Part shown: positions 6,958 to 58,444 of the stretch, in pieces
Layout of the letters: the number at the start of each line of letters is the position of its first letter
How positions within the stretch are numbered: the first letter of the stretch is position 1
NCBI GenBank assembly: GCA_027946365.1
Contig: JAPEUQ010000004.1
Coordinates: forward strand, 248,001 to 312,000
DNA length: 64,000 bases
DNA from: Kalmusia sp. IMI 367209
Lineage: Eukaryota > Ascomycota > Dothideomycetes > Pleosporales > Didymosphaeriaceae
Reading direction: 5' to 3'
Program-made: the position numbers and the translations under genes
Notes under the pieces: model-generated
Told to the model about the DNA's origin: nothing
The model's input: only the letters and a program-made list of their open reading frames with translations
Database searches by the model: none

Positions 6958-9561
6958 TCACCTGTTCACTTCTAGAAGAGTGTTGTTCGTAGTTTTGCTA
7001 TGGAAACTAGAGCTCTCTTCTTTGCTTTCTACGCACAATCCGCCTATATACTCGTCATCATCGTCATCGTTATCCGGGAAGCTAAATCGCGCAACGGCAT
7101 TGAGGATAGGTGCCTCGGTCTTGATGATAACCGAATCAATCGTGTGATCGTGAACAATGTCTGGAAGGACTGCTAAGGCAGTGAAACGTGATCTAGTCAT
7201 TGGAGTCTGCTTTCGTCGAAGCAAATGGGATCGATGTTGACGACCTTGAAACGAGAAGGCGGGGTCAAGAATCTGAAGCCTTGGGCTCTTCATAGCGCGT
7301 GAGCCATCGTCTGCGTTATTGACAAGCTTGCGCTTTGTGGTTTGCTGAATATTGGGGCGATTGGAAACTGGATGTTCCTTGTCGGTGGTATCTTCTCGCA
7401 GCTTTGTTCCGCCGGTTCGTAGCTCTTGGTCGTGATTGCTTGTAGATGAGGTTATATCCATATTTGCATCGGGCTTATAGTGTTCATTCGAGCTACAGGG
7501 GAATTTTTCTTCCTCAATAGTGGTTGGTGGCTCTTCAGTTGCTTTTGCCTTCTTCCTCAAAGGGCCCAGATCATCATATTTGCCAAAGGCCACAATACTT
7601 CGCTTACTAGAGGTTGAACGAAGCGATGGCGCTGGTACCGGCTCTGGGGAGCCAGCCTTAGCAGTAGCGTATCTCTGCACATCTGCTCTATGCTTTTCCG
7701 CTTCGGCGGCTTGTAACCGTGCACCGTAAGTGCTAACAGGCACAGAAGAAGTTGAAGCTTCATTCAGGATCATTTCAGAGACTGAATTCGCTGCATTGTC
7801 TTGAGCAATGGGTTGTTCTGGAGAGTTAACCCTCATATCTGCTTGTTCTGCGTCGCTCCAGTGAACATGTTGTTGACTGGACCGTTTTTCTGCACTCAAA
7901 TTTCGCATCTGAGAGCTCTTTGTTCGGTTCGACTGCTCATTCAAACGATCTTCTTGCGCTTCATTGACTGGATGTTCAGCATGCTTCGAGAACCATACGG
8001 CGTTGGTAGCAGCTAACTCCTGTTGGAGCACGTAAAGATTTGCCACTATTAGTGGCGTATGGCTTTCAAGAATGGTGTGAGTGGTATCGGGCGAAGAATG
8101 TGGAGGGGCTTCAGTGGGTGTATCCTGCTCTGGTTGCGATAACCCAATTTTAACGTAGCGACGCCCCCTAACGTGAACAGGTGCATCGGCACCCTTAGAC
8201 TTCTCTCCATAACAACAGCTCTCGTAGCAAGATCCATGACTCGAATTGTACTCTACAGCGATACAATGCCAGTCGCTCCAAAGGCCATCATATACGCTCT
8301 TTTCGATGGAAGAATAGTCGACCTGGTTCCACTGTAACATGGTGCCCATGTCGCCCGCACACGGGAGCAATTCTTCCCATTGTAAAACGCGATCGAACTT
8401 CGTGCGTCTATGAGAATACGCGTTTTCTTCCTCGGGTCCCGTGCTGATCCATGTCTGTGTGGGCCAGGATTCGAAGTCATGGAATCCCCAGTCTCGAGCT
8501 TTTGTATAAACTTCACGATAGATCGCGCGAGCCTTGTGCTTCTGATGGCCAAGTCTCAGAGCTGTCGTGTTCCAAACGTTACGATACTCGGCTTTATTTC
8601 GAATCATATCTTCTCTGCTCTTATGAGGAAGGTTATTGGATTCCGCCCAAATCCCACACCAGCGTTCGAACTCGCGCATCCATCTTCTGAACTGAGAACG
8701 AGCTTCGTGGAAATTGTTTGCACAAAAGTCTACCCAAATCGGGACACACTCTTGCAATTCGTTGCTGCTAATGTATAATTGGTTCGACCGATAGCCTTTA
8801 TGCTTAGACGGGTCATATTTCAGACTCTGTTCAGGTGCATGTTCTTGTTCAGGTGCGCGCTCTTCCTCACTTGAACCACACGAGGGATGATCACAATGCC
8901 TTTTTTCACCTTCCGCTGGTTCTACTATAAATCCGGACATCTCAAAAGTCATAGATAACTCGCAATCAACTTTTGACCAACCGGCTTCAAAGTTTCGGCG
9001 ACACTGGTTCAGAGACTCGTTGAGAGCGGCTTGCTCGGAAATGACCTGATCTAGAGTATGTTGCAGCTTTGGTCGACTCTCAAAAGCTTGAAGTAGCTTC
9101 AACTCATCCTCTTTCTCTTGGCCTGGTCTACCGTCTTTGAGTTGAGCCATCAAAAGCTCGATCTTATAGCCTAACAAATCAAGCGCAGCCTTCGTCTCAT
9201 GTTGCTTGTTCGAGAGTGTGCGAAGTCGTTCTTCGGAAGCGCTGCTCATGTGGCGGAAACTATGCCCAGCGCATATAGCATCCCTTATTTTCTGAGCAAG
9301 ACTGTATGATAGAATGATTGCTGTCACCGGTTTGCTGAGGTCACCGTTGGCGACGTTCATCAGTCTAGAGGGGCCATCGATGTATTGATTAACGCAGTGG
9401 TTCGGGTGCATCTCCGATTTAGAGGCCGCGAAAACGTGCTCGAGTGTCGATTCCATGGGACATATTTGCGAAAACGGGCCCTCGTTGCGGCACGCCATGG
9501 CTGTGTTCTCGATGGGAGACGTTGCCGCGTATCGTAATGGCTGGCTCTTGTAATGCGCCAA
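6958..9561 (-). CDS. Large coiled-coil/disordered protein, 867 aa (paired family, copy b)
   Basis: Uninterrupted frame. Function is not recognised. Residues 63-100 hold the family N-terminal motif (GPSRLMNVANGD, then AIILSYS). Residues 107-205 are two heptad-rich helices separated by a Gly/Pro linker (DGRPGQ) and closed by a Trp. Residues ~270-460 are Trp-rich and globular, including a K.E[YF] then A.RL then Y...Y signature (KAEYRN, ALRLG, YREVYTKARDWG) shared with 56189-58444. The last ~350 residues are Ser/Glu/Lys-rich, probably disordered, with basic nuclear-type clusters (TSSKRS, RKKAK, TKRKL). There is no signal peptide or membrane segment. The start is 446 bp from, and divergent to, the RS-tailed gene at 10008, so a shared promoter is likely. 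Nuclear location is inferred from the basic clusters only. Confidence 0.7.
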   Translation of the reverse strand: MAHYKSQPLRYAATSPIENTAMACRNEGPFSQICPMESTLEHVFAASKSEMHPNHCVNQYIDGPSRLMNVANGDLSKPVTAIILSYSLAQKIRDAICAGHSFRHMSSASEERLRTLSNKQHETKAALDLLGYKIELLMAQLKDGRPGQEKEDELKLLQAFESRPKLQHTLDQVISEQAALNESLNQCRRNFEAGWSKVDCELSMTFEMSGFIVEPAEGEKRHCDHPSCGSSEEERAPEQEHAPEQSLKYDPSKHKGYRSNQLYISSNELQECVPIWVDFCANNFHEARSQFRRWMREFERWCGIWAESNNLPHKSREDMIRNKAEYRNVWNTTALRLGHQKHKARAIYREVYTKARDWGFHDFESWPTQTWISTGPEEENAYSHRRTKFDRVLQWEELLPCAGDMGTMLQWNQVDYSSIEKSVYDGLWSDWHCIAVEYNSSHGSCYESCCYGEKSKGADAPVHVRGRRYVKIGLSQPEQDTPTEAPPHSSPDTTHTILESHTPLIVANLYVLQQELAATNAVWFSKHAEHPVNEAQEDRLNEQSNRTKSSQMRNLSAEKRSSQQHVHWSDAEQADMRVNSPEQPIAQDNAANSVSEMILNEASTSSVPVSTYGARLQAAEAEKHRADVQRYATAKAGSPEPVPAPSLRSTSSKRSIVAFGKYDDLGPLRKKAKATEEPPTTIEEEKFPCSSNEHYKPDANMDITSSTSNHDQELRTGGTKLREDTTDKEHPVSNRPNIQQTTKRKLVNNADDGSRAMKSPRLQILDPAFSFQGRQHRSHLLRRKQTPMTRSRFTALAVLPDIVHDHTIDSVIIKTEAPILNAVARFSFPDNDDDDDEYIGGLCVESKEESSSFHSKTTNNTLLEVNR

Positions 9562-10007
9562 GTCTATGCCTGCCTTGAAACAGGAAATTCAGGCGGAGGA
9601 GTCAATGTCACCAAGCGTTCGGTCGTGTGCGCGCAAGCGATACGCGCAGGATAAGATGTCCGGGTTAGGGGTAGAATGGCAAGACGTAAATATGAGGCTT
9701 TTGGGCTGAGGGGTCCAGTTCTTATGCAAAATGGCGGTTGGAGTTGCTATTCGAAAGATCTGGTAAACAAGTGAAATAATCTCCGGAGGTCGCTGTGACG
9801 TAACTTATTCATTCACTCATTGATTATCGTCACAACAAAAAGCTTCATTTGGCCCGTGCACGATTCCGTACACAGTCCACTAGAACGAACAAATACTATC
9901 TCTCCCAACTTCCAATTTACTCATCTAGATCTGACCCACGGGCGACGTGCTCGATTCGCAGCCAGCTCCACTTTTGGCGGCTTCCGCAGCCCTTGCGCTT
10001 GATCAGT
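9562..10007. promoter_or_regulatory. Shared divergent promoter region
   Basis: 446 bp between two divergent starts (minus at 9561, plus at 10008). It contains CGCGCAAGCGATACGCGC-like CG-rich sequence near 9630-9650 and a TGACGTAAC element near 9796 that resembles a CRE/ATF-type site. The motif match is by eye and the regulatory role is inference. Confidence 0.35.
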
Positions 10008-11689
10008 ATGGTGGATACAGGTGAGGCAAGATATCCCGGATCTCTACAACGGCTAACACCGGGCGTAACATTAGAGGACATCCCTCTCGTCCCTCATCCC
10101 TTCGTTCTGCTTCCAATGAACAACGGGTTGCAAATTTGGATTGCAACGTCGGGGTTCAAACTCAAGTAAGCCACGTCTCTATCGACAAACTTAAAGGTGC
10201 GTCATGAAGGACTTTATTAAATACCGCCTCTAGCAGCATCTAGACAACTCAGTCGGCTTCGAAGGCACGTCGGCTAGGACCAAGAATACGCAAGATACAA
10301 ATTCGGGCCCACATTTGCCTCTGCAATTCTCCACATCAAGAGCAAGCGAAAATTATCTCGATACTAGGAAACTCGATGACCCTGGGATGGTCAATACCCT
10401 GCCCGTGCCTGAGTTTGACCGAGAACCTTACTGTAACACTATCCGACGGGGGAGCATCATATTAGCCAACCGTTCCGAGTTCTCGCTAGATCCTCGAGCA
10501 CGTCAGGAGATTGCGAGTGGTTCTAAGAAGTTTGTGTGGGTTGGAGGCAGGATTGTTTCCTTCAAGACACGCCCTGCCCTTGTTATCGAACTGTCTGACG
10601 ATTGTGCCAATTGTTTCCCTTTTCGAACGCACGCTAATTCGGGACTGAAGAAGCTTTTAGCGAGCAAGACCTCGAGCGCAAAGCACCTCTACCTAGAAGG
10701 TCTGTGCCAAGACTTCGATGCCAATGATAGCCCTCACGATTCGTTGAAAGTCTATGAAGACCCTGGAAAAAGAATCAGCCACAACTCTTACATCAGTGTG
10801 GATGATATCTGCAAAATCCGGCTAGAGGAGTGCATCGATATAATCGGCTCTATATCTGATGATGACTTGAATCGGGTAGATCAACTTCGAAGGTCTATAC
10901 TAAGGGGAGAGCCTGCAGACAATCCGGGTCTTAATGACGGGACTATCCAGCAATTTCAAAGATAATATCAGAAAAACCACAGAGGCGGTAAATGACCATT
11001 CAGAGACAATAAATAGTCACAATATGCAACGAAAGGGCCGAGGCCGTCCACTCTATCCCAAGAAAATTGGCAACGACCAGAATTATTTGATAACGAATTC
11101 CTGTCTTAGTAACTTCAGCCTACGCCATGCTTTCCCTAATTCCATGAAAATAGGATCATACTCAGATGAACACCATCCATCTTCACAACGCTACGCTCGT
11201 TCGCGTTCACCAAATAGATACTCGGGTCGCTCTAGAAGCAACTATCGGGACCGCTGTGACAAACCAAAAAACAGTCATGCCAACTTGCCACACCCTTCTA
11301 GCTCTGGACACTACTCAGAGATGTTTAGTGGCGAATTTACCGGACTGCCCCTAAATCGCAGCTCAGTCCATAATCAGCCAAACCCTGATCAGCACCTTAT
11401 GCCCCCACCTATACGTGAGCAACGTACATCGAGGTCAACTCGGAACTACGCTCGTTCAACTATCCGGGTCGACGAAACTCGCGGCACGGAGAGCACGAGG
11501 TATTCTTTAGGTAAGAATGACAATCGTCACTACTACCTGTCTCATCAGGTATCAACCCGGATGCCAGGGTCATTGAATCGTTCTCAAACTGACGCAAGCC
11601 AAGCGTTCAGGACGTCGAGCAGATTTCAGCAGACCTCTAGGCAACCGAATGATCTCCAAGATCGTCAGCGACGACATCGAATACAGTAA
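10008..11689 (+). CDS. RS-tailed protein with RP-x-VI core (paired family, copy 2)
   Basis: Proposed exons: 10008-10165, 10278-10892 and 10951-11689, about 503 aa. The 58-bp second intron (GTCTAT...CTTAATGAC...CCAG) joins two frames cleanly. The first intron is less certain, and a 54-bp in-frame GTGAGG...CTAAC...TTAG intron may lie inside exon 1. The core reads CNTIRRGSIILANR, then RPALVIEL, then FRTHANSG and SYISVDDI; it matches the protein at 53068-54285 at the same spacing. The C-terminal half is rich in Arg/Ser (SRSPNRYSGRSRSNYRDR), as in RNA-associated nuclear proteins. The core looks like a small beta-rich domain (DUF6590-like or SH3-like are possibilities); no function is claimed. It sits divergent to the coiled-coil gene at 6958-9561. 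Confidence 0.6.
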
Positions 11690-12405
11690 CACGAAACCCC
11701 TCGACAAAAAAATCGGTGACGACGTTGACGTGTCATGCGTGCCTCATAAACCATACCTGCTTCTGAAGCTAACTTAGAGCAAGAAGTACAACAAGTGGTG
11801 CCTGATTGACTTAGCCTCTCGTGTCTGTTAGTTCGCTAAGAGCTCTGCTGTCATTGGTTTCTGGATTGTTTCCAAGTAAGGTTCTTGATAAGAGATCTCC
11901 GAAGTCCCTTCCAGTCATTCACAGTTGTTTATGTCAACGATAGGGTATTGGATTGCTCATATGCATTTATCTCCGTATTGTGTCCAAGTCCAGTTATTTC
12001 TGAAGACTTTCGATGTCCCTACCAGCAATGCATGGTCTGGCATACGTATATAGGGAACCGGGAGAGATGCAACTTACATGTTGGAAGACTGTTATTTTCA
12101 CTCGATTATCTGTTTCTTTGTTCTATGCAGTAACTGCTTCAGGTTTGCGATCAATAGTCAGATTGCTGCTTTGGCATCCAGCGTTCGAGATAGGATTTCA
12201 TCAGCTTTTGCTAACAATGGAACGAGGGAGAATATGCAAATGCCTGTTACCTACTACTGTGATGTAGAAATTATGGCGGTTGCCTGCTGACTTGAAATTA
12301 CCTTCTTGCTAGACATCTCTCTCTCCGGGCGATAAAAAAACAAAACATAACTCTCCCTTGACGCAATTATCCTTTTCCTTTATCCTTGCCCTCCCGTAAA
12401 TCCCG
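11690..12405. other. Intergenic, no gene seen
   Basis: 3' flanks of the convergent genes on either side. Short open frames between 11885 and 12290 overlap each other in all frames and lack coding character. Confidence 0.4.
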
Positions 12406-13109
12406 CTAATTAAAAAAGCTCGTTCCCATCGGACTGACCATCTCCTCGCTCCCCACTCCGCCCCTGCTCGCCGCCTCTCTCCAACTCCATTCGTACATCT
12501 TACCCTTCTCTTCGCGCGGCAAAGGTACACTACATAGCGTCGTAAGCGGATCTACCGCGCCCACTACCTTGTGTTCCGTCTCGCTGTCGCTCTCTACGAA
12601 ATCGCTCTCAGACCAGTTCCTGCGCTTCTTCTGTGGCCGCTTGGGGGCTTTATCTTCGGTCTTATTCTCGCGCTTGCGCTTGAGCGCTTTATCGACAGTG
12701 TATCTCGGACTCATAGGTCCATATTTGTGAGTGAAGTTGTTGGTGCTCGAAGGAGGCTGCATGGATTGCTGGAGGGAGAAGGGGAGAATGGGACGTTGAT
12801 ATTGGTGAGTTGATAACCCATAGTGCTCAGCTCGTAATCTACTTGTGCCTTGAGAATACCCCAGTCACGTTTGAGAGTGGCTATGCGTTTGCGTGCGGCG
12901 CGCTTGTCAGATGGGGAAGTGAAGAGGCTGTCGGAGATGTCGCGTGAGAGGGACGCTGCTTGGCGAGAGATGGTGATTAGCTTTTCGATTCTTTGGGCCT
13001 GCGGGAAAGGTACAGTGGGTTGCGTGGGAGATAACAAATGGGTGGCGAATGAGCGCGATGGGTGTTGGGGATGGCCGTATGTCTTAGCTTGGGACTGCTG
13101 CGGAAGCAT
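12406..13109 (-). CDS. Hypothetical basic, probably nuclear protein
   Basis: The start ATG at 13109 follows a clean upstream region. The N-terminal ~95 residues include a helical segment (RIEKLITISRQAASLSRD, then KRAARKRIATLKRDW). The C-terminal half (12406-12762) is in another frame and carries strong basic clusters (KALKRKREN, KRPQKKRRN) followed by an acidic patch (ESDFVESDSETE). The two frames may be joined by an 89-bp intron opening GTAGAT and closing TCCCTCCAG, which gives LKAQ-QSMQPP in frame. A one-base frameshift near 12800 is the alternative. Both halves look genuinely coding. Family not recognised; nuclear location inferred from the basic clusters. Confidence 0.55.
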
Positions 13110-15383
13110 TTTGATAATCGTGATGATAGTCTGTATTTAACGTATTTTCGGTAGGATGTTCTGTTGTATGTGGAGGTCTGAAATGGTGTCGACAGAATGG
13201 GGCAACTTGGGACTATCATGTAACTGGATTCCTTTGTCCAAGATTGTCTTAATGATACCAAGGTAACAAAGTACTATTGTTTTAGTCTCGATATAGAACA
13301 AAGCCAAATAAATATAGAGTTATGCAATGTCATTGAAGTACATTGTGCGAAGGCTAGCCGTAGAATGCGAGGCCAAGCATAAATAAGAGCGAATTCCGCT
13401 CTCGGCACAGTCTTCAACGAACCACTAACAACTGACTTCAATCGACAATAAGTCTATCGAAATGCGAGACAGCTTTGTTACTGTGCAGCGAGATTGAATG
13501 TAGCGCTTTCTTCGAACCTATTCGGTCTCTTTGGAAGACTCGTCACCAGGACGGCTCACTCAGAACTCTCGGGTAGAGTCTCAACCAGGTTTGCTCCCTT
13601 CCGTTTCCGAGCGAGATACTAACATATCGGTTACTAGGCATTACAGTAAGGTGCCAGAACAGAGGAGGCACGGCTATTGAGACCCGTTGCTAAGGCCGCC
13701 TAAGCCTGGTGCTAGGCGATTTGATAGCTTGTTTGGAACTCGGAGTAGTTCACCAGCACACAAAAAACTTCAGTAGCACACGAAACAGCTCCAATAGCGC
13801 ACTAAGTTACTCTAGTATGGCACGAAGCAGTTCTAGTAACACAAGAAGCGGCTCCACTGAGGCTACAGAGATTCAATAACGCAGCCGAAATAAAGCGTAT
13901 CCTGACCAGAGGGCACAATTATCAAGCCGTCGACCTATGCTCCATCCCGCCTATAACGATCTTGAGATAAAGACTGACATATACTATAGGCAAGATTACC
14001 ATCTTGGAAAGGACTGTATAAGTCAGTTCGACCGCAAGCTCCCGCGTGTGCTCGACTTACACCAGCACATGTACAATTGTTACGATGGTGTATCATGATA
14101 CAATTTGGATTTTCTCAAGGAAGCCATGACCACATGATATCTCGAACCTTTCGTACTTGAATTGAATTGATCTCTCTAGGGCTAGTGCTCAGGCTACCTT
14201 GGTGGCAACCGCTAACATGTGGCGACACAGGTGAACGGTCGTGTTGCAATTATCACTTCAAAGCTTGTTGAGCATGTGAGATTCACCGTTTTGTATACAT
14301 TCCGGAAGCAAGGATTGGAGAGCGAGCCGAGACAGGCGTGGTCAGAGCACGTCGGCCCCCGTGTGTCCAATCGCAACTTCCGTGGCACGTCCCTCCACGG
14401 ACCTCTCGAGGTTGATGAGGCGTTCTGCGGAATCTTGCCGCACAGCTCGGTGCATCTGGTAGAGAATAAGGTCTCGCTTAGCGCCCAGATCTTGATTACG
14501 GGATGAATCACCGCAACTCTTGAACAACTTCGTTGATTGATCAATTTCATGGAAGGGTAGATCGCAAGGGTAGCAATAACCTGGGCTAGTTGCAATCATT
14601 AATAAATGAGTGGCGGATCAACGATGCTTTGTAGATTGGTACCATAGTAGGAACAAGTTTTCTTTGTTAGATCATAGAATTGGCAGCTGCTGCTTACTCC
14701 AAATGGCTCTTCTTGCGATAGTAGTGATGCTAGCGAGGACGCGTAATGAACGCGATGGACTTGTGAACGGGATCCGCAGTAAGCGTCAGGACTGAGACAC
14801 GGACTCTGAACGGCGAACGTAGAGAAACATTAGATTGAAACGATGATTGCAAACATGCAAATATGGGGGTTCAATGCAAGGCATACGTCCGGGCTTTTCG
14901 CAGGGCCGTTCCAGTAGTATGAAATGGGAAACCTGGGGGCTGTGTTGCTGCGCGATGGATCGTGAGACACGCGTGGTTGCATTGCGCGAAGATGTGAACA
15001 TTTGGCGAGAAAGCGGCCGCCGAGTCGGCATTGTGCATCCGTATCGCAACGCCGTTCGGACGAGAACCAGCGATGGCTAACGTAGAAAATGCGTGAAAAA
15101 GCTTGCAGTGTGTAGAGGCAAGGCCGTGTTCCAAGAATAGCGGCCCTGGGTTGTGGGGACGACAGGGGTCATCTGCTGCAGCGGCTCGTCATTGGCGGGC
15201 CGTGCGTCAAAGAATGCAGAGAGCCATGGTTCACAGCCGCAGACCAACGCCTCGAGACGCGTATCACTGTGGCCCTCTTTGAACATTCCCTTAATATAGG
15301 CAGAAGACGCTCGCTGACGCCAGGCACTTATACTGATTCTTTGCTTCCTTCCCCTGCTCCAAACCTGGGCGGGATATGACGCC
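13110..15383. other. Long intergenic region with a short minisatellite
   Basis: No convincing gene in 2.3 kb. Open frames near 14212-15385 overlap on both strands, lack splice context and look like chance frames in balanced-GC sequence. The only structure seen is the ~21-bp tandem repeat at 13749-13860. Confidence 0.4.
13749..13860. repeat. Degenerate minisatellite, ~21-bp unit, five to six copies
   Basis: Successive units begin TTCACCAGCACACAA, TTCAGTAGCACACGAAAC, TCCAATAGCGCACTAAG, TCTAGTATGGCACGAAG and TCTAGTAACACAAGAAG at 20-21-bp spacing. The core T.YAGTAGCACACGAAGC is visible by eye. Confidence 0.65.
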
Positions 15384-17010
15384 ATGTTAGACGAAGCTTT
15401 GCCCAGTATGCTGCCCTGCCTACCAATCGTCGGCTTTTGACTTACGCTAATATACGACGCCAGCTTTCTTTCTCAAGCCTTCGGCGGATAAGATCAAACA
15501 CCATGAATCCTTCTACTATACACAGAACGGCTCTGAGCCAGAAGCTTCCTACGCCCTGACCCACGTCGACCCCGCCTCCAACGACGCGAAGAACACTTAT
15601 GCGGTAGCCCCTCTTCGACTCGCACAACCCCGAGATACTATACGGCGAGGTACTCTCGAAGCCGGGATGGTCACAGCCTTCGTTGTCGCAGGAAGAGATT
15701 CGCAAGAATGGCGGAGTACCGCCGCCACCACAGCCCATCTTCCCCACCGAGTTCGCCATCCAGCTCTACAACCCTGACCAGCAGATCGTCGTCAAGCAGC
15801 AAACCACGAAATGGAGCTCGACCGTATCATACGAATTCAGCATGCCTCAAACTAGCTTCAGGACGCCGAGCTCCTCGGCTCTCGATCGTACTCTGAACGA
15901 CCCAGGCGCCGACGCCGCTACGCCACACATCAACTTCGTATGGAGAAAAGAGGGCCGCTTGGGCAAGGACATGACTTGCTATTTGACGGGAAAGTCTACA
16001 GATGTGACAGGCAAGAAGGCAAAGAAGAATAAAGAGCCCGACATTGCCGTCGCTCTGTTCTCCGGGCTCAAGGAGATCACAATAATGGAGCCGAATCTAT
16101 ACCGGGTCGAGATGGAGGATTACAAGGGTCTAGAGGTGGTAATTCTGCTTGGGGGTGCTGTCATCCGCGATCTGTTCTTCAGCAGTCCGCGCGAGTCTTA
16201 TCATATCTTGGACCCGAATATTCGCAAGAATAGCGGAGGGATTCGGACACGGAAGGGCTCCTCACCACTCGAACCTTCGACCATACTGCCGCCCATCATG
16301 ACGCCGCAGCCTCCTCAACAACCGCCCCGCCCCGTCCAACAACCATCCAGATCCGCCAGAGCTACACCGACAAATGCATTGTACAACCAGCCCTCCCCTA
16401 ATGCTGCTAAACGCTCATCACTGCCTCCTCTCCAAACGGGGAACCGGCCAGCGCAACGACTAGATCCTCGGTCACAGTGGGAGATTGATGCTGAGACGGC
16501 GCGATTGAAGGCTCAAGTAGAAGCCGAAGCTAGGGAACAGCGGCGGCAGGAAGAGATCAACCGCAGAGCACGGCGAAAACAGGAGGAAGAGGAAGAGCGG
16601 AAAACGCGACAGTTTCTCTTGAAGACGAAGAAAGGAGACGAAAACACGCAGAGAAGGAGCGCAGACGGCGGCAGGCTGAGATAGACCAGGAAACCGAGCG
16701 GCTCCGGAGACAATTCGGAGACCAGAGCAGTCTCCTCCCTCCAACGCGCCACCAACAAAGGCACTCTGTGCCCCTTGCTCAGGGCCCGTTCCATCAACCT
16801 GTACCTGCATCTTCGCAGGCTCACCGTCCGGGTCCGTACCTGCAACCTCATGGACCCCAACCTGCCGCGTCGCAGAGCGCTTTCTTCAGCAACGGACTAC
16901 CCAAACCAAATGCGCAGCAGAAGATGAAGAAGAAGAGCTTCTGGGGCCTACGAAGCTCAAGCGATTCCAATACGAGTACCCTCAGGAAAAAGCAGAGTAG
17001 CATGTTTTAG
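15384..17010 (+). CDS. Charged Pro/Gln-rich protein of unknown function, frame disrupted twice
   Basis: Exon 1 is 15384-15405 (MLDEALP); the intron 15406-15463 has GTATGC, CGCTAAT and CCAG signals; exon 2 starts at 15464 and reads through SFYYTQNGSEPEASYALT. Coding then shifts frame near 15604-15611 (a CCCC run) into LFDSHNPEILYGEVLSKPGW, and on through a long frame to about 16610. That frame includes FAIQLYNPDQQIVVKQ and a globular N-terminal domain of ~170 residues, then Pro/Gln-rich linkers and an Arg/Glu-rich helix (EEEEERKTRQ). A second shift near 16610-16640 leads into KHAEKERRRRQAEIDQ and on to the stop at 17008, ending KKKSFWGLRSSSDSN. A 46-bp intron (15604-15649) could replace the first shift. 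Conserved domains on both sides argue for one gene with base-call indels or recent damage. Family not recognised. Confidence 0.55.
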
Positions 17011-19690: not shown

Positions 19691-21189
19691 ATGAAGTACT
19701 CCCTCATCGCCTCGCTCATTCTCCAGAGCACCGTGGTGCTTGGTGAGCTGGTGCCGGTACACTTCAAGGCCCCGAGCCCGGCACATTTCAGAGACGTTGT
19801 TCGCAATGACACGTACGACTTCGGTAAGTCAGGCCGTGCCTACGCCAACCGCCACCATATCTGCTAACGCCATCTCCAACGCAGGCTGCAGGGCCCGTTG
19901 CGCAACCAACCGACGATGGCGCCTTCCGCCTCGCTGCGTGGTTGAGCGAAGCCCAGATTGTGGAGTTGGAGAAGCACTACGAGTTCGACTCGGAGATCTC
20001 CATCAAGCGCAACCTAGTCAAGAGGGCCGCAACAGCACCCATCGGAACCGGCGATCGCTTTTCGTCTGGTACCGTTGCGCCCGTGGGTCTGGGAACGCAA
20101 GCCTCCGGAACGACCATCGCGAGCATCATGAACGTCAACGAGATCACCTCGGCGATCAACGCGCTCGTCAAGGTCTATGGAGCCTCGACCATCACCCTGC
20201 CCTCGAAGACCTTCAATGGAGCCACCCAAGTTGTTGGCTACGTAGGCGCCGGTACCGACAAGTCTGCGTACCATCTTTACCTCAGCGCAGGTGTACACGC
20301 TCGTGAGCGAGGCGGACCAGACAACCTTATCTACTGGATCGCGGATCTGCTCGCTGCGAACAAGGCTGGCACCGGTCTCACATATGGCAAGAAGACGTAC
20401 ACAAACGCTAATGTCAAGAGCGTCCTTGCGGCCGGTATCGTATTCTTCCCACTCGTCAACCCAGACGGTGTAGCCTACGACCAGTCATCGGGCTCGCTCT
20501 GGCGTAAGAACCGTAACACCAAGTCTGGCAGCAGTGGCGCCTCGGTCGGCGTTGATATCAACCGCAATTTCGACTTCCTATGGAACTTCAAGAAGTACTT
20601 CGTCTCAAGTGAAGCCCCGGCGTCGACGTCGCCAAGCTCAGAAGTCTTTTACGGCACGGCAGCTGCCTCTGAGCCTGAGACCAAAAACCATGTCTCTGTC
20701 TACAGCTCTTTCCCCAAGATCCGCTGGTTCATGGACATTCACTCCGCTGTCGGCGACCTCCTATACAGCTGGGGTGACGATGACGACCAGACTACAACAA
20801 GTACTATGAACTTCCTTAACAGTGCATACGACGGAAAGCGTGGAACCGTGGGTGACACTGCATACAAGGAGTACATTCCTTCTCAGGATTTGACCAACAT
20901 CAAGAACGTAGCGGCGAAGACAATCGCAGCGATGAAGGCCGTTGGTGGACGCTCATATTCGACTCAACAGGCAGTTGGCCTCTATCCTACTTCTGGCGCG
21001 ACGGACGACTACGCGTTCAGCAGGTATTGGGCTGTTCCGGGTGCGAACAAGGTCTATGGATACACATTGGAGTTTGCTCCATCAGGCAACTTCTATCCTA
21101 CTCTAGCGGAGTTCAACACGAACATCTTGGATACCAATGCTGGGTTCATGGACTGGGCTTTGGCTGCTATTTCTGTTGGTCTTGAGTAG
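19691..21189 (+). CDS. Secreted zinc carboxypeptidase, peptidase family M14
   Basis: Two exons, 19691-19823 and 19892-21189, 476 aa. The frame requires the acceptor CTGCAG rather than the earlier ACGCAG. The signal peptide ends near residue 18 (STVVLG). A propeptide follows and carries possible Kex2-type sites (SIKR, LVKR around residues 84-89). The catalytic domain has the zinc ligands His180/Glu183 in GVHARE and His328 in FMDIHS. Substrate-binding NRNF lies at 269-272, a DDY Tyr near 417, and the catalytic Glu438 in YTLEF. These match M14A enzymes that remove C-terminal residues from peptides outside the cell. HARE is followed by RGG instead of the common W.[ST]. The gene ends only 132 bp before the inverted repeat of the transposon island yet shows no RIP-like stops. 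Confidence 0.92.
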
Positions 21190-47058: not shown

Positions 47059-47279
47059 TATCCTGTCGGAACCTATTCTTAAAGGAATCACGTGCAGACG
47101 CGTCCAAGCTCTTCCGCATCAGGCACCGGGCGTCGTTAGCTTAGGCGACAACTCTTAGCGTGTAACATGGCTATAACTTCAGGTATCACAAGCTTTTCTT
47201 CCTCCAATTCCCTTCTCCTGATTCCCGTCCATCAAATCTAGACTTCAAACCACGAAATCCCCGTCTTGCTGTCTACAAA

Positions 47280-49467: not shown

Positions 49468-49888
49468 ATGCGCTTCATCTACTCCCTCCCGATCTTCGTC
49501 GCCTCTGCCCTAGGCCTTACGAACCTCACGCTCACGAATCGTTCCGGCGAATCCCACGACTTCGTCGTCGGCGACACAGAGGCCTGGTTCGATGTCTCGT
49601 CCACCGGCCTGTATACCGACATCGCGACTGCTTCGGTGAAGAGCGATACGTCTGAGGTTGCGGCGTGTTATGTTTCCAGCAATTCGCTATCGCAGAGCAA
49701 GTGGGTGCTGTACGACCCTATTGGAGTGAGTATATCTCCAGACGGAAAGGAAAATAAAAAAGGATTGGCTGACAAGGATGCTCTAGGCACCGACTGAGTT
49801 TGGAGGCGCGGACGTCAAGTTTATTACTTGCCGGGAGAACTTTGGGCTGCCGGAGTGGATCGGAAAGGACGCTATTGTGAGTGATTAG
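49468..49888 (+). CDS. Small secreted protein, 119 aa, candidate effector
   Basis: Two exons, 49468-49725 and 49787-49888; the intron GTGAGT...CTAG keeps the frame. The signal peptide is MRFIYSLPIFVASALG, with cleavage likely near residue 16-18. The mature part is about 100 residues with two cysteines (AACYVSS and ITCREN) that could form one disulfide. N-glycosylation sequons are at NLT and NRS. No domain is recognised. The last codons run through a GTGAGT, so an additional intron and a longer C-terminus are possible. It lies 2.4 kb from the RIP-affected island, the kind of place where fungal effectors often sit. The effector idea is inference from size, secretion and position only. Confidence 0.6.
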
Positions 49889-50891
49889 GGGAATTTTGGG
49901 TGATGGGATATAGGCTGCGCGTCATGGATTGATGGTATTGGTTTGGAATTGCATCAAGGCGTCTTGTGCATTTTGCGAATTGACTATTACTCGTATAGGT
50001 TCGTCGAACTATACACTTATTCCAACATTTTGTACCTTTGTGGAACCAAGTTGAGTATGATTGGTGTGAGATCAAGACGGTTCCACTTTTGGCCATTTAG
50101 ATTTTCGAATATAGAGTCTCACAGAGCACTTCATAGAACGAGCAATACCACTGGGCATCAGTATACTCAGCCGACGCTTACATTACGCTTAGGAAAATCC
50201 TCACTCATAGTACGTGCCGGTACACATAGCACGAGACGCGGAATGATCCCATATCTAGGTGTCGTGTGGATAAATTTAGCGTCAATCAGGCAATAGAAAG
50301 GCAACGTAAAGCATCGTAGCCGGGAAAGGTAGCAACGGTCGCGCTACTGTCAGCAAGTTTGCTCTTGTTGGGTGGATTGATTTTCCTCCGCTTCGCCCCC
50401 GGAGCACATCTAGTTTTACGAAACTTACAAAATGACCGTCGGCCCCGGGTATTAAAAGTCTCCATTCCTTCGTCGTTCCAGATCGAACACCTCGGTAAGT
50501 GGATCTGATCGCATTTAACTCTGTTCTTTGTGAACAATGACATTTTCCCCTAGGCACTCTCAACCGTCGACTCTTTGCCAACGTATTCGCTAAGTGTTTC
50601 TGCAATAGATCAAGTCGTTCGCTGCTAGCGCGACCACTATTCTGAGCCATCATCGTCCGGCAAGTCGGCAGGATGTATCGCCCCGTTCGCCGATGCGCAC
50701 TAGCCCGAAAATGATGATGCGCCTCGTGTCCGTAGACGCCAGCCGTGAAACGACCCACGTCTGGCCCTATAACTTTATATCGATCGCACCTCGACGTGTT
50801 GCTGCTTACATCTGCTACTCTTCCCGTTGGCCTAAGTTCCACGACCAAGAAAACAAATTCTGCCCACCCCCCAGCTTGTTTGTAGGCAGAA
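49889..50891. other. Intergenic and upstream region of the P450 gene
   Basis: No convincing gene. A 188-codon minus-strand frame at 50282-50848 is Arg-rich with no domain and overlaps frames on the other strand; it is treated as chance. Confidence 0.4.
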
Positions 50892-52612
50892 ATGGCGATT
50901 CCGAAGCGGGCCTTCGTCGTTGCCGCGGCGGCGATTACGTTTTTCGCACGGCGGTATGCGCCGTGGGCGGTGGTGACTTCGAGTGCGACGTGGAATGTGG
51001 TGGTGCTGTCGTTCGTGGGAATGCTTGCGCAGTTCTGCTGGTCTACGTTGGTGTATCCGTTGCTTTTGAGTCCGCTACGTCATTTGCCACAACCGCCGGT
51101 GCGTATCTAGTCTGATTCCTAGATTGGGTTGAAGGTGTAGCTAATGAGATCAGGGTGCAAACCTGGTCATAGGACATTGGAAGAGGATATTCAAAGAGGC
51201 GAGCGGCGAGCCACAAAGAGACTGGATTGATACGGTGCCGAACGACGGCGTGCTATATTATCGGTGGTTGTTCAATGAGCCGAGAATTCTGATCACAAAT
51301 CCCAAGGCGCTGGCAGAGGTATTGGTGCAGAGAAGCTATGAATTTGTGAAGCCTGGTCGTGTGAGGAGAGGCGTGGCGAGACTGCTCGGCGTCGGTATCC
51401 TCCTCGCTGAGGGCGATGAGCATAAGGTATATCAGTCAATAGTTGTCTACTTACAAATAGCTGACATCTTTGCAGCGTCAAAGGAGAGCTCTCATGCCCG
51501 CCTTCGCTTTCCGGCACATCAAAGACCTGTATTCGGTCTTCTGGAACAAGTCCACCGAGATGACTGACGCGATCTCCAATGCCCTCAAGACTGATCCAAT
51601 TGGCTCTGATGTCGTAGAGATCCGTGATTGGGCTTCTCGTGCAACTCTTGATATCATTGGTCTGGCCGGCATGGGGCAGGATTTCAACGCCATTGCTGAC
51701 CCCACGAATGAACTCAATGTAACATACCGGACCATTTTCAAGCCCAGCGCAATCGCCAAGATCATGCAACTTGCATCCATGTTCTTACCCGACTGGTTGC
51801 TCAGATCCCTCCCCATCAAGCGTAATGAAGAGTTCAAAGAAGCTATTCGCACTATCAAGCGCGTGTCTGCCGACCTAGTCAGATCCAAGCGCGCAAAACT
51901 AGAGAAAGGCGAACGGACAGACGTCGATATTCTCAGCGTAGCCATCGAATCAGGCGGCTTCACCGACGATGACATGGTGAATCAACTGATGACTTTCCTC
52001 GCAGCAGGCCACGAAACTACCGCATCCTCGCTAACCTGGGCCGTATACCTTCTCTGCAAACATCCTACTGAACAGACCCGCCTGCGCGAAGAAATCCGCA
52101 AAAGTCTTCCCGCCATACGCGACCCTGCTGCGCAAATATCGTCCACGGACATCGACCACCTCCCATACCTCAACGCAGTCCTCAACGAAACTTCTCGCGT
52201 CTTCCCACCTGTAGCCCTTACCCTCCGCGAAGCTGAGCATGACACCACCATTCAAGGCCAGTTCATACCCGCAGGCACCACCATCATCATCTGCCCCTGG
52301 GCCATCAACACCTCAAACGCACTCTGGGGCGCCGACGCCAAAGAGTTCAACCCAGATCGCTGGATGGGACAGGGCCGCGCTAATACCGGCGGGGCAGAAT
52401 CAAACTATGCGGTCACAACGTTCTTGCACGGACCGAGAAGTTGCATCGGAAAAGACTTCGCGAAGGCGGAGTTTGCGTGCTTGTTGGCGGCGCTGGTGGG
52501 GCGGTTCGAGATGGAGCTGGCGGAGCCGGATAAGCCGTTGGAGATTCAGGGCGGGATCACGAGTAATCCTAAGGGTGGAATAAAGATAAAGATGAAGGAG
52601 GTGGTTGGGTGA
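50892..52612 (+). CDS. Cytochrome P450 monooxygenase, 538 aa
   Basis: Three exons: 50892-51098, 51154-51426 and 51476-52612. Introns are GTGCGT...ATCAG and GTATAT...TGCAG. The N-terminus has hydrophobic segments (residues ~5-55) for ER membrane anchoring, then the Pro-rich hinge LRHLPQPPG. All core signatures are present: I-helix AGHETT at 337-342, K-helix ETSR at 398-401, FNPDRW near 451-456, and the haem loop FLHGPRSCIG at 476-485 with proximal Cys483. HEH/KRQRR at the C-helix and length are normal for microsomal class II enzymes, which take electrons from CPR. The sequence resembles CYP4-like groups. No biosynthetic cluster surrounds it, so the substrate cannot be guessed. Confidence 0.93.
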
Positions 52613-53067
52613 GGGCAGCATTTGTTGTATTGCGGTACTGGTAGATTCCGCACTTCTTGCTGGGGGACAGCATGCTCTTACATTTCGTGTTAACTACAAA
52701 TTAGTTGCGATCAATTGGGTCATTTGCAGATATGTTATCCGTGCTCAGCTTTGTGCACTGACAATTATGGTCAAAGAACAGTGAAAGTACATCCATGCAA
52801 AAGGATATCCAATCCCCTCATGTCAGTATCCCCACATCTCACGCAGAACATTCGTGTTCGTTCGCGTCCCCTTTTCTGGTGTGATAAAAGTCGTCAGCAT
52901 CATAAAATTCTAGACGAATTTTTTCGTAATTGGTGACATTTAGGTCTTGTCCATCAACAATGAAACGCGAAGATACCCAGTAATGCATTGTGGTTCATTT
53001 TAGTCAGTGCTTCCCCACATGCAGTCTGTGCGTACAATATGTATGCAGCGTGCAAGCTATATTTCAG
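52613..53067. other. Intergenic between convergent genes
   Basis: 3' flanks of the P450 gene and of the minus-strand RS-tailed gene; nothing else seen. Confidence 0.4.
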
Positions 53068-54285
53068 CTATGGAGCTGTACGACTATTACGATCGCCTCG
53101 TCTACTATCGCGGTCGTGGCATTTTGTACGTGGAGGTGTGCGGTTTCGATATCGGCTAGCACCTTCTCGATCTTGAGTACCACGCGTAAGCTCTTCATCA
53201 TCTTTGCGCTTCGGAGATGTAGAACGGTCACGACGGACAGAACCGGGAGATCGAGAGCGACCTCTACAGGAGGAATCGAGCGACAAGCGGCGGTGTGGTT
53301 GAGGACCTCGGTGGTTAGCATGACCGGAGTTGCGCAAGTTTTGAAGTTCGTGCAATCCCTTGTCCGAAGTGTCATTGTCATACGGCATCGGGGGCGTGGG
53401 ATGTCTCTTGCGACCCTGCTGGTCTCGGTCGACATAGCCGTTGACCATTATATTCCCTTGAGTTACCGCATTTCGAACAACAAAATTTGCATCATACCCT
53501 TCTAGAGAGCAGCCAAACGGTAGCGGAAGGCGTGCCGCAGCTTCTTTCGTCAGCTGGCCGACATACTTGATATCTGACATCGGCACTAGAATCATTTGCT
53601 CGGCAAGCTTGAATAGACTATGTGGTCGCAGAAAGCCCTTGACTACCGATCTGGGAATCATGTTGAAGGGTTGTATATCCAGCACAACATCCTTAGAACT
53701 TTGGTGGTGAACTGTATCCTTGACCCAGCCCCACAAGTGTTTCTCATCTTCTGGGATACCCTGGCTCCCTCGGTTGGAACGTGTTGTGAGAGTGCTGAGA
53801 ATTGCAAACTTCTTGAAGACTCCGTAGATGACTGATGGACGCACCGAGGCTTCGGCAAGACCCACTCCTGTCAGAAACCTACGTTCATCTGGTACAGCTC
53901 GAGGGTCGTTAGCTTTTTGGATAATCGGCACATACACGACAGCTCCTCGACAGAGCTCTGTATGCTTCCAAAGTGGAATGTGGAGTTTTCGTGGCTTTTG
54001 TTCACCTTTGCCTCTCTCCAGAGGTATAAAATGATCGAGATATTTCTTGGCTTGTTCTTCGGACAGCTCGCATACTATGGCCTTCAACTTCCGTACGCTG
54101 TCAGTCTTGTGTTTAGACTGTTTCGGCTCTTTATTGGGGTCGCTGGATAGACGATCCTGATTGCTGGGACGTCTTCGGTCATTGTAGCCACTCCCATGCT
54201 TGGACTGACGAGTGGGGTCTACAACCAGGGATAGATTTTGACTCCTGATGTCAACTGATACTTTGGTCTCTTTTACTTCATTCAT
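53068..54285 (-). CDS. RS-tailed protein with RP-x-VI core (paired family, copy 3), 405 aa
   Basis: Uninterrupted frame from ATG at 54285. Residues 1-110 are basic and probably flexible. The core at ~112-255 begins CRGAVVYVP and continues ASVRPSVIYGV, TTRSNRG, PHSLFKL and DIKYVGQL. It aligns without gaps with the protein at 10008-11689 over the RP-to-NxG stretch, where R, P, A, T, N and G are identical. Residues ~325-405 form an Arg/Ser/Asp tail (RGRSRSPGSVRRDRSTSPKR) like those of splicing- or RNA-linked nuclear proteins. No signal peptide or membrane segment. It lies about 1.9 kb downstream of the start-proximal region of no gene and 1.9 kb from the 3' end of the coiled-coil gene at 56189-58444, on the same strand. 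Function not recognised. Confidence 0.7.
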   Translation of the reverse strand: MNEVKETKVSVDIRSQNLSLVVDPTRQSKHGSGYNDRRRPSNQDRLSSDPNKEPKQSKHKTDSVRKLKAIVCELSEEQAKKYLDHFIPLERGKGEQKPRKLHIPLWKHTELCRGAVVYVPIIQKANDPRAVPDERRFLTGVGLAEASVRPSVIYGVFKKFAILSTLTTRSNRGSQGIPEDEKHLWGWVKDTVHHQSSKDVVLDIQPFNMIPRSVVKGFLRPHSLFKLAEQMILVPMSDIKYVGQLTKEAAARLPLPFGCSLEGYDANFVVRNAVTQGNIMVNGYVDRDQQGRKRHPTPPMPYDNDTSDKGLHELQNLRNSGHANHRGPQPHRRLSLDSSCRGRSRSPGSVRRDRSTSPKRKDDEELTRGTQDREGASRYRNRTPPRTKCHDRDSRRGDRNSRTAP

Positions 54286-56188
54286 TTTTGTTGAGGACAG
54301 GTAATGCTGGGTGGTCTCATTGAACTTAGCGGACTATGGAGAGTGATCTATTAGTTCATGCAAGATAAACACCATGAGGTATGTAGAACCCACTTGATTT
54401 AGATCTGTGTGCGTTGAACCAAGACATGCTCCATCAAAGTGATGGGCAAATGAAGATGCCTCTCCAGGGTTCAGGCGGTGGTTGCTAGTCATTAGGGATT
54501 TGTGTGGCTGAGCAATCCGCTTGAACCGATCGGTCACGACGTAGGAATGATCAACATGAGTTGATGATGTTGTATAGTCGCGATAGGCTTTGCCGTGCTC
54601 TGCGCGAGAATCACGGATCGGCCCTGGAAGTAGTTGCTCATGCTGCTCATTCTGCTCATCCCCTAAGATGTAGTTATCTGATTGACTATAAGCACAGAGT
54701 ACAACGTCCTCGTACAGTTATAGATACTGACTCTCACGGGCCATAACCGGAAGCGACACTATGTTGGATATGCGCGTGGACGAGCTCCACGAAGGGCGGA
54801 TGTTGAAGTTTCTCATACCCAGTTGAGTACCAGCGTCTAAGCCGTGTTTAAATCAACAAATGAAGCGGTTATTGAGTCTTAAATAAAGAATGTACATGCT
54901 TGCCATCTCAGGGTTAGCAGGCTTAGTTGACAGACGATCGCACGTGCGCATGTCACGAGGACGTTTAAAGAGATCGTGTCGAATCTTCACACACCTTCTG
55001 ATTTGAGGGAGTATCATCCTACGTTGTTCTCTTCCCAGGTTGACTAAACGCCTAAACGTCTAGATCATTGCTCAAAATCACAATAGATAAAACTTCGGTG
55101 CATTGCTTTTGCGTAAAGTATCTTTCAGGATTTTTATAAGTCTTAAAGTCGTTAAAATCAGGGCCTTTGGTAGCGTTTGGATCCTCGCTTTTGGCCACAC
55201 AAACAGTTTTACGTCTAGCTATTGTGAGACTTCTGAGCAGCGCTCATCATGGTTGCTCCCTGGGCACACAGAATGGAAGCTTGAGGATAAGCGATTGTCG
55301 TCAAAGGTCATACTTAACATGGAAGCAGTAGCGACAAAGGCATGGCATGGTCAGAAATAGTGCGTAAAATATGGTCCAAAGTCTCTGCGCAGAAATTAGG
55401 CCCAGCTGGCAGAGCATTATACAGGGGAATGGACTAGATGGCTTTGGTATTAGCGGCTTTTATAAGATGTGTCTCGAGCTGAAATCTGTCTTGCATGAAT
55501 ATTCTAAGAATCTAGACTATCCTACTGAATCTACCCTTTTTATTACATCATGAGTGAAGGCTGTCAGTTAGACGCATGGCACTGCCTAAGACGTTTCTCA
55601 ATCCAAAGGTACCTTCAAAGGCAAGGAATCTGAGCCAGCTGTATTCCAAGCTCCACTTAGGCCATCTATATTCCAAAATTTGTTCAGACTAGCTATATTT
55701 GAAGCTTTGCTGTCATTCAATCTGTACTGTGACATCTATCTTGACCTAAGGCTTTGTTGCCACTTCGTGTATTGTGTTCGGATTGCTCATTGTTGCGCGT
55801 CCGTTATGTGCTCCATGTGGTATTCGCTCACTATGTGAACTTTGACTTTAATCTAGGTGATTAGCCCATATTTTGAAACGTCATAGATTTTAGCGGGTCG
55901 GATTATCTTATCGCTTGCGCTCAACTAAGCTGCTTAGTCTTCTATACCAGGCATTCTGGTATTTATGTCGAAGACTGGTACGCCAGAACATTTGCTTCAT
56001 TGATTTCGCTTGAATCTACCCGTCGCTAGCGTTGTAGATTAGGGGCATTGTGAACACCGTTTCGTCGATGCTGTATATGTGAGAGCCTCACATAAATCTG
56101 ATGTGGTCGAAGGGACATATGAGAAGTAAAGAGCTTATAGTTCGTCATCTTCGCCAGGTGCGGAGGTAGGAGAGCTTACGGACTGGCG
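54286..56188. other. Long intergenic stretch, no supported gene
   Basis: Short plus-strand frames at 55103-55360 and 55371-55553 lack domains. Around 55630-55710 three loosely similar ~27-bp units (CTGTATTCCAAGCT, TCTATATTCCAAAAT, GCTATATTTGAAGCT) suggest an old tandem repeat. Confidence 0.35.
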
Positions 56189-58444
56189 CTAACCATTGGC
56201 ACGTACGTTCTCTTCCGCAGGCGAAGGATCTGTGGCTGTACCGATTGGCGGCGATGTCGCTTGTGGACCATATGCTACTTCCTTGCTCTGTTCTTTGTGA
56301 AGAGAGCCTAATGACTTAATAGCAGGCAGATTTGTGGAGATTACGGGGACGGCACCATTGTCAGCCTGAGTACGCTGGATAGGGAAGTCGTTCCCACGCT
56401 GAGTATCATTCGCGGGTAACACACCGAATGAATTATGTATCTTCAGCTTCTTCTCATTCCTATTGTCGGCTTCGTCGTCATCATCGCGGTCGCGCTTGTG
56501 AATGTTGGTTGTACCTGGACTAGCCTTTTTGTTGGCAGAATTGTAGGCTAGCTGGCGCATATCAGGAATAAGAAGGGTAGCCTGAGGTTCTCCTCTATTT
56601 CTAGCGTGGTTTTGAGAGACTTGTGAAGCCATATTAGGCTCTCCTTGGAGGATATCAGAAATTGGTCCTTGTGTAGCCTTTTGATGGCGACATGGATTGA
56701 GTACATAAGGTCCGACTTGTAGCGGCGCAATTCTTCTCCGTTTTTCATCAGGCATAGCGATATCTCCGTTGATCTTTTCCAAGGATCTTTTCTTATCATG
56801 CGCTTGTGCAACGTTCAAATAACCTACAGAGTCTTCTTCACCATGCGAACGAGAAGCACTTTGTGATGTATCGAGGGTGTGGCCTAGTTGGGATTGATCT
56901 GTGACTCTCGCGGGTTCGTTCATTGGAGACTTGGTAACAGGGACTGACGGAGTTTGCAGAGGACGTACGGACCTTGTATCGAATCTATCGGGAGATTGCG
57001 GATGGGAGCGAATAAAAGCGCTGTTCACAGCAGAACCACATACAATTGGAATGCTTACGCTTAGCTTACTACAAGGGAGACCAGATGAGAATTTTTCAGC
57101 ATTTCGATCGTTTACATCGTTCTCGTGAACCAGAGAGCGAGGCTTACGTCGTGGACAAAATTTTGCTTGTTCTTCGATGGGACGAGCTTCATACTGCTTT
57201 CTATCACTGATGATTTGATCCAATCCAAGGATACAAGGCTCCAGAGATATTGAAGCCTCTGCCTGCAATGTACGACAAGGCGGGGGTCGTTGCGAAGCAC
57301 TATCCGAAGGATAGATGCTACCTTCGGTCACCCTCAGCGAATCTTGTTCGTGCGGTACCCGTGATGATGGGTCCTTCTCGACTTGTCTTTCGTCGGAAAA
57401 ACGATAGCAGTCCTCACTATTCGGTATGGCGACTCTCCAATCATCCACGCGCTGACGATCATGAAACTTGATTGCGTAAAAATCTTCTTCGTCGATAGCT
57501 CCAGGTATCTCAATGCAGCTTCTCTTATATACTATAGGAAGATCATGCTTCTCAAGACCCGATTTTACGCCTCTTTTGTATTCTTTCGTGTACAAGGCTT
57601 CTTTATCCTCTCTTTCCTGATACAATCGTGCTGCTTCTCTTACATAGTTTGCATAAAATTCGTCCTTGCATATGTATATATCGGGTACATCGTAGATCTC
57701 GTCTTTCTTTGACCAGAGATATTCCCCGAACAACCTTTTTGCGTTTTTCATGTGGAAGCTGTAAGCCCGACGTGTATCTTCAACGTTCTTAGCTTGGCTA
57801 GCAAGCCGAAGACGAGCTCGGTGAGCGGATTCTTTTCTTTCTACGGCTCTTGAAGTTCCAGAATGAGTTGGCATAGGTACCTGCTGGGTTGCCATAGGGG
57901 GTTCTCGCGATCTACACTCTTTGAACATGCCTGTCTTTTTCCAAGCTTCTTCCATCGCAAGATTAAGTTTCTTCCACTTCTTCTTCACATTCTCAGATGA
58001 TTCATCGATCTCTTTGTCACAAAGAGCCTCCCTTCTCTTCATCAGTTTGATGTCTGAATACGATGCGGCTGTTTTTCTATGCAGTTCAGCCAACTCTCCT
58101 AGAATTTCGCCGTATTTCTCATTGTTCTGTGGGTCGGTGCGCTGTAGACTTTTCTCCAAGCTCTTGATCTGAATCTTAAGAGCGCTGATCTCGTCATTAC
58201 TGATGTGCGTTGCATGTTGCCAGCGTTTTACGTTCGCTCTTTTGGTCGTAATGAGCGCGTCGTACCTGCGATTGGAGCGTACAGCTTCCTCTAATATATT
58301 AAACATCTCTTGAGAAATCAGCAAGGCCGGGACTTGAGCCTCCCCATCGTTCACGCTTATGAACTTTGCACGTCCAGGCGTGAATCGGTCGAAAGTGCGT
58401 TTTTCAGTAGAATACCGGTTTTGACAGGTGCGGGACTCGTTCAT
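56189..58444 (-). CDS. Large coiled-coil/disordered protein, 751 aa (paired family, copy c)
   Basis: Uninterrupted frame from ATG at 58444. Residues 22-62 hold the family motif (FTPGRAKFISVNDGE, then ALLISQEM and a downstream Ala/Tyr). Residues 65-170 are two charged helices with heptad-like spacing and a DPQNN linker, ending KKKWKKL. Residues ~205-345 are the central domain with KDEFYANYVREAARLY, ALYTKEYKRG and VDDWRV; these match KAEYRN/ALRLG, YREVYTKARDWG and SDWHCI of the 867-aa protein in order. The rest is Ser/Pro/Gln-rich and probably disordered, with basic clusters (EKRRR, KRDRDDDD, EKKLKI). No signal peptide or TM. Nuclear or cytosolic location is inferred. Function not recognised; homology to 6958-9561 is judged by eye but over several ordered motifs. 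Confidence 0.7.
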   Translation of the reverse strand: MNESRTCQNRYSTEKRTFDRFTPGRAKFISVNDGEAQVPALLISQEMFNILEEAVRSNRRYDALITTKRANVKRWQHATHISNDEISALKIQIKSLEKSLQRTDPQNNEKYGEILGELAELHRKTAASYSDIKLMKRREALCDKEIDESSENVKKKWKKLNLAMEEAWKKTGMFKECRSREPPMATQQVPMPTHSGTSRAVERKESAHRARLRLASQAKNVEDTRRAYSFHMKNAKRLFGEYLWSKKDEIYDVPDIYICKDEFYANYVREAARLYQEREDKEALYTKEYKRGVKSGLEKHDLPIVYKRSCIEIPGAIDEEDFYAIKFHDRQRVDDWRVAIPNSEDCYRFSDERQVEKDPSSRVPHEQDSLRVTEGSIYPSDSASQRPPPCRTLQAEASISLEPCILGLDQIISDRKQYEARPIEEQAKFCPRRKPRSLVHENDVNDRNAEKFSSGLPCSKLSVSIPIVCGSAVNSAFIRSHPQSPDRFDTRSVRPLQTPSVPVTKSPMNEPARVTDQSQLGHTLDTSQSASRSHGEEDSVGYLNVAQAHDKKRSLEKINGDIAMPDEKRRRIAPLQVGPYVLNPCRHQKATQGPISDILQGEPNMASQVSQNHARNRGEPQATLLIPDMRQLAYNSANKKASPGTTNIHKRDRDDDDEADNRNEKKLKIHNSFGVLPANDTQRGNDFPIQRTQADNGAVPVISTNLPAIKSLGSLHKEQSKEVAYGPQATSPPIGTATDPSPAEENVRANG

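What the first reader, a model, noticed from the sequence alone, without database searches (positions are those of the whole stretch)
6958..58444. A two-gene module (coiled-coil protein plus RS-tailed protein) occurs on both sides of the transposon island
The 867-aa protein (6958-9561) and the 751-aa protein (56189-58444) share ordered motifs: an N-terminal [AL][IL][IL]xS motif, a two-helix coil closed by a Trp, then K.E[YF]...A.RL...Y...Y and a DW motif. Each has a neighbour (10008-11689; 53068-54285) with an RP-x-VI core and an Arg/Ser tail, and those neighbours align to each other too. Two unrelated families recurring as neighbours suggests a functional pair, for example a partner complex, selfish two-component unit or RNA-linked system. 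Sequence divergence is high, consistent with rapid evolution. The pairing is seen; function is unknown.
Basis: partly seen in the sequence, partly recalled or inferred. Interest (0 to 1): 0.75.

Follow-up and report, generated by a model that had tools for sequence, protein, structure and literature searches.

The report
Fungal MazF-fold protein beside orphan partner
In an endophytic fungus, a diverged protein predicted to have the fold of a bacterial RNA-cutting protein (MazF) sits next to a gene with no known relatives, and a second copy of that orphan gene lies 47 kb away; whether the two genes work as a pair is not shown.

Summary
The two long proteins (P0003, 6958-9498 minus; P0001, 56189-58444 minus) are true paralogues over some 340-360 N-terminal residues: each is the other's best match among 645 ORFs, and 0 of 400 shuffles reach the score. 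Their C-termini are unrelated. No other relative was found. The claimed similarity of the neighbours is not established by sequence (rank 7-56 of 645).

Best reading: a fungal MazF-fold, probably RNA-acting protein linked to an orphan helical partner, duplicated long ago. Functional pairing, for example effector and inhibitor, is plausible but untested. Host: cf. Kalmusia sp. IMI 367209.

The parts
6958..9498 (-). P0003/P0013: 846-aa orphan protein with helical-looking N-terminal region; paralogue of P0001
   Evidence: homology
8317..9390 (-). stretch of P0003 (residues 58-415 of the 867-aa ORF) homologous to P0001
10435..10911 (+). predicted MazF/PemK-fold, DUF6590-like domain of P0004 (residues 68-226); conserved Arg113 at 10570-10572, Thr132 at 10627-10629
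10904..11689 (+). +1 open frame with Arg/Ser-rich stretch (densest about 11156-11278); probable tail of the P0004 gene
53068..54285 (-). P0002: 405-aa protein with RP-x-V-I core and Arg/Ser-rich tail (53068-53388); not proven to be MazF-fold
53512..53958 (-). stretch of P0002 (residues 110-258) with the DUF6590/MazF motif order (RG, RPSVI, T, S, VG); Arg149, Thr168
   Evidence: forced alignment only; not established
56189..58444 (-). P0001: 751-aa orphan protein, paralogue of P0003
57377..58390 (-). stretch of P0001 (residues 19-356) homologous to P0003

Best explanation
The left pair is a diverged fungal MazF/PemK-fold protein of the DUF6590 kind (P0004), transcribed divergently from an orphan helical protein (P0003). 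The right pair keeps a true, very diverged paralogue of the helical protein (P0001) next to a second R/S-tailed protein (P0002) that probably, but not provably, has the same fold. Mechanism, inferred: the MazF-fold domain, with an Arg kept at the catalytic position, binds or cuts RNA, the Arg/Ser-rich tail directs it to RNA or to the nucleus, and the linked helical protein binds and controls it. The pair was duplicated long ago and has evolved fast. Shown: homology of the N-termini of P0001 and P0003, predicted MazF fold of P0004, adjacency at both loci. Not shown: fold of P0002, RNA binding or cleavage, binding between partners.
Confidence: 0.4

Rival explanations
1. Linkage without partnership: an old local duplication, or a chance cluster of fast-evolving genes beside a repeat island, put the genes together; the helical protein and the MazF-fold protein do not act on each other.
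For: Orientation differs between the loci; no DNA similarity remains; only one of the two families is proven to recur; of the two canonical DUF6590 loci found in this genome one has a different helical-looking neighbour, unrelated by sequence, and one lies near a TPR gene with a sub-threshold NB-ARC match.
Against: Both paralogues, although only 18-22% identical, still have an R/S-tailed gene with the same motif order next door.
Confidence: 0.4
2. The MazF fold is used as a non-cutting RNA- or protein-binding module (a nuclear RNA-processing protein with an Arg/Ser tail); the neighbour is a structural or scaffold partner. This does not exclude the best explanation's linkage, only its cutting.
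For: Arg/Ser-rich tails; the Thr lies one residue off the recalled MazF position in alignment; identity to MazF chains is 13-21% in the listed VIA rows.
Against: Arg and a Thr are invariant in all 9 rows of A4, though P0002's row was forced and seven rows are close relatives.
Confidence: 0.35
3. P0002 is unrelated to P0004; its RP-x-V-I core and R/S tail are chance and composition.
For: Rank 7-56 of 645 ORFs, no Pfam match to DUF6590 or PemK up to E 10, poor model; RS dipeptides at chance level.
Confidence: 0.35

Closest known systems
DUF6590 (PF20233), fungal family of unknown function
   Same: P0004 matches positions 39-150 of 152, with the KTR..VI, C-x-P-x-x-T, S-x-I and iG-x-[IL]-S motifs in order
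   Different: Score 14.8-15.9 bits, below the curated cut-off of 27; the N-terminal W-x-W...DYY segment carried by 6 of the 7 DUF6590 hits is not seen in the frame read (N-terminus unresolved); R/S-rich tail
MazF/PemK endoribonuclease toxins (PF02452) of bacterial type II toxin-antitoxin systems
   Different: Eukaryotic, R/S tail, no PF02452 match for P0004 or P0002; neighbour is an 846-aa orphan, not a small antitoxin; activity unknown
Two-gene toxin/antidote elements of fungi (spore killers, heterokaryon incompatibility pairs), recalled; only a search listing seen
   Same: Linked, fast-evolving gene pair without known relatives, beside a repeat island
   Different: No evidence for killing, drive or presence/absence variation; one strain only

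Membership tests
DUF6590 (PF20233) | Score above the curated cut-off (27 bits), P0004 | tested here: not met
   14.8 bits, E 0.029; 15.9 bits, E 0.013 for the domain alone
DUF6590 (PF20233) | Profile similarity in the correct register, P0004 | tested here: inconclusive
   For: hhalign P 0.0024 over 117 columns, 2 of 400 block shuffles against the C23 domain. Against: hhalign probability 12%; 353 of 400 shuffles for the L010 frame; a spurious ORF scored higher
DUF6590 (PF20233) | Profile similarity of P0002 | tested here: not met
   hhalign P 0.71 and 0.65; no Pfam match up to E 10
MazF/PemK toxins | MazF-type barrel plus C-terminal helix, P0004 | tested here: met
MazF/PemK toxins | MazF-type fold, P0002 | tested here: inconclusive
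MazF/PemK toxins | Catalytic Arg and Thr | tested here: inconclusive
   Arg aligned in the 7 rows of A7 that can be counted (the L010 row is intron there); Thr aligned to T53, one after the recalled T52 of E. coli MazF
MazF/PemK toxins | PF02452 score above cut-off | tested here: not met
   No match for P0004 or P0002; none in the own genome, where the first look also passed over the C23 domain
MazF/PemK toxins | Endoribonuclease activity | not testable with these tools
   needs biochemistry
Type II toxin-antitoxin module | Adjacent gene whose product binds and neutralises the toxin | not testable with these tools
   Adjacent gene exists; no binding or neutralisation data
Type II toxin-antitoxin module | Pair recurs as neighbours in many genomes | tested here: inconclusive
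   No relatives of P0002, P0001 or P0003 found elsewhere; two loci in one genome, one of them with P0002 unproven

The most novel reading that the evidence does not exclude
DUF6590 and its diverged relatives are a eukaryotic branch of the MazF/PemK fold, and in this fungus a MazF-like RNase is locked in a fast-evolving two-gene module with a dedicated orphan inhibitor: a fungal counterpart of a type II toxin-antitoxin pair, present as two mutually diverged copies 47 kb apart on one contig, as expected of an allorecognition or selfish element.
Probability: 0.15. Interest if true: 0.85.

Novelty: new variant of a known kind. Interest (0 to 1): 0.5.

Why it matters
DUF6590 is listed by Pfam as a family of unknown function, and no paper in the PMC library names it. 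Linking it, through P0004, to the MazF/PemK fold gives a directly testable prediction, RNA binding or cutting, for a whole fungal family. If the linked orphan protein turns out to restrain it, fungi would have a MazF-type effector-inhibitor module, a kind known to me only from prokaryotes (recalled).

Tried and rejected
Homologues of P0002: 2758 candidates among 5.8 billion proteins, none at E<=1. Homologues of P0003+P0001: 5866 candidates, only P0003 itself at E<=10. The canonical DUF6590 domain of C23 gave 7 proteins at E<=1 among 171 candidates, four of them with organism names, all from what I recall as Didymosphaeriaceae. P0004 was not used as a query there. The method needs shared 5-residue words, so absence is weak evidence. 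In the own genome P0003 had one further match, E 0.15 with a stop inside, not pursued.

Further members near by: hmmsearch of 2779 ORFs of 50 aa or more in 28 sequences, 308 kb (window, 200 kb to its left, other fetched loci), found no further copy. In one search I dropped the ORFs of L012 and L014, which repeat other loci, before ranking. There a frame in L034 (z 6.1 and 4.9) and an antisense frame inside the TPR gene of L008 (z 4.0 and 5.0) scored about as high against the P0004 domain as the true DUF6590 domain did (z 5.5 and 3.7). I judged the L034 frame spurious on reading its alignment; the L008 one was not aligned. So the P0004-DUF6590 link rests on register, Pfam, hhalign and fold together, not on pairwise score. 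The regression was spoilt by the self-match and was redone.

The helical-looking gene P0005 beside a DUF6590 gene at L010 is not similar to P0001 or P0003 (299 and 137 of 400 shuffles). The first exon frame of 12406-13136 is not significantly similar either (35 of 400 for P0003, 320 of 400 for P0001). Segmental duplication at DNA level: none found. PDB by sequence: none for the DUF6590 profile, E 0.41 for P0004, kinetochore SPC24 at E 0.71 for the P0003/P0001 profile; P0002 was not run there. NCBIfam and PADLOC at E<=0.1: weak matches for P0001 (0.014, 0.033), P0003 (0.037) and the C23 DUF6590 domain (0.025, 0.062), none for P0002 and P0004.

Papers: listings showed no title on fungal or eukaryotic MazF/PemK. 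In one of them (PMC2701414) I read five passages for 'fungal' and 'eukaryot', none about fungal MazF.

Full report
WHERE IT IS. The window is C25:248001-312000 of a 42.78-Mb, 30-contig fungal genome. A 195-residue domain of the same genome is identical to part of N0V90_003841 of Kalmusia sp. IMI 367209, on a contig of the same length as C23. Assembly size and contig number match 'cf. Kalmusia sp. IMI 367209', an endophyte of the Didymosphaeriaceae (PMC10027605, passages seen). C25 is 3.93 Mb long. The middle of the window is AT-rich and strongly RIP-like (composite RIP index 1.16-1.64 in the 2-kb steps from 22001 to 46000); the gene pairs lie outside it in normal sequence.

THE ORPHAN FAMILY. 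P0003 (6958-9498, minus; 846 aa from its ATG, as in the database copy) and P0001 (56189-58444, minus; 751 aa) align collinearly over residues 58-415 and 19-356 (BLASTP 32.7 bits, E 6e-5). The N-terminal parts score 164 against 64.8 +/- 11.7 for block shuffles, 0 of 400. Each is the other's best match among 645 ORFs of at least 100 aa, z 11.1-15.5, the next ones at 5.0 or less. phmmer did not see it well (0.87 and 1.6 at a nominal database of 1000). The C-terminal parts are not similar (97 of 400 shuffles). The 5.8-billion-protein search returned only P0003 itself, and the genome-wide searches no third copy, apart from a match of P0003 at E 0.15. Those searches miss relatives as distant as P0001 is from P0003, since neither found the other.

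CATALYTIC RESIDUES. MazF needs Arg25 and Thr48 (B. cereus and B. subtilis; PMC7354611, passages seen). Against E. coli MazF from K-12 the only invariant columns of 8 rows are G22, R29, T53 and G92. The L010 row begins inside an intron there, so its Arg is not evidence; 7 rows count. R29 is, as I recall, the E. coli counterpart of Arg25. The recalled counterpart of Thr48 is T52, one residue before the aligned T53, and parts of that alignment are gappy. So the Arg is kept; the Thr is close, with its register unsettled. Direct sequence similarity to MazF is otherwise negligible (hhalign P 0.047 over 16 columns for DUF6590).

GENE STRUCTURE. The span 10008-11689 is not one frame. The domain frame ends at 10965 and the R/S-rich frame 10904-11689 is shifted by one. 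Candidate introns exist for the 5' end (10166-10277) and the 3' junction (for example 10928-10982), none with convincing signals; a frameshift cannot be excluded. The R/S tails are real in composition (P0002 tail 21% R, 12% S; P0004 tail frame 15% R, 17% S) but not enriched in RS/SR dipeptides.

IS THE PAIRING MEANINGFUL? Both paralogues have an R/S-tailed gene next door, yet orientation differs (head-to-head against same strand). The whole-genome search found two canonical DUF6590 loci, a lower bound. At C5 the gene is head-to-head with another helical-looking protein, P0005, unrelated by sequence to P0001/P0003. At C23 it lies near a TPR gene with a sub-threshold NB-ARC match. This is too few cases to count, and no other genome could be compared.

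VERDICT. A working effector-inhibitor pair remains a hypothesis. I found no paper naming DUF6590 and no title on fungal MazF/PemK in the listings; that covers only the open-licence PMC library.

Noticed in passing
L010 (C5:1029000-1038000) 4157-5918 minus and about 6660-7926 plus: A helical-looking, proline-rich protein gene (P0005) lies head-to-head with a canonical DUF6590 gene, the same arrangement as P0003/P0004, though P0005 is not similar to P0003.
   Followed up: partly
L008 (C23:3280000-3289999) 3261-6329 and 7655-9050, minus: The other canonical DUF6590 gene (N0V90_003841) lies near a gene with TPR repeats and a sub-threshold NB-ARC match (NLR-like).
   Followed up: partly
window 22000-47000: Strongly RIP-affected AT-rich island (GC 0.20-0.33 in 1-kb steps; composite RIP index up to 1.64).
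   Followed up: partly
window 12406-13136, minus: Short gene with a helical-looking stretch closed by a Trp (KRDWGILKAQVDYELS), tail-to-tail with the P0004 gene; resemblance to P0003 not significant.
   Followed up: yes
window 54334-54717, minus: Open frame of 127 aa directly upstream of P0002 in the same frame, separated by a stop; may be a 5' exon.
   Followed up: no
L009 2075-2224, plus: A frame with the N-terminal W-x-W...DYY motif of canonical DUF6590 proteins (hmmsearch E 0.022 with A2), about 3 kb from the C23 DUF6590 gene.
   Followed up: no
window 53068-54285 and 56189-58444: P0002 and P0001 were not returned as their own matches in the protein database, while P0003 was; the deposited annotation may lack them or model them differently.
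   Followed up: no
window 427-957, 19828-21189, 51461-52612, 59777-60334: Ordinary fungal genes around the pairs: tyrosinase C-terminal domain, M14 carboxypeptidase, cytochrome P450, TSR2-like.
   Followed up: partly
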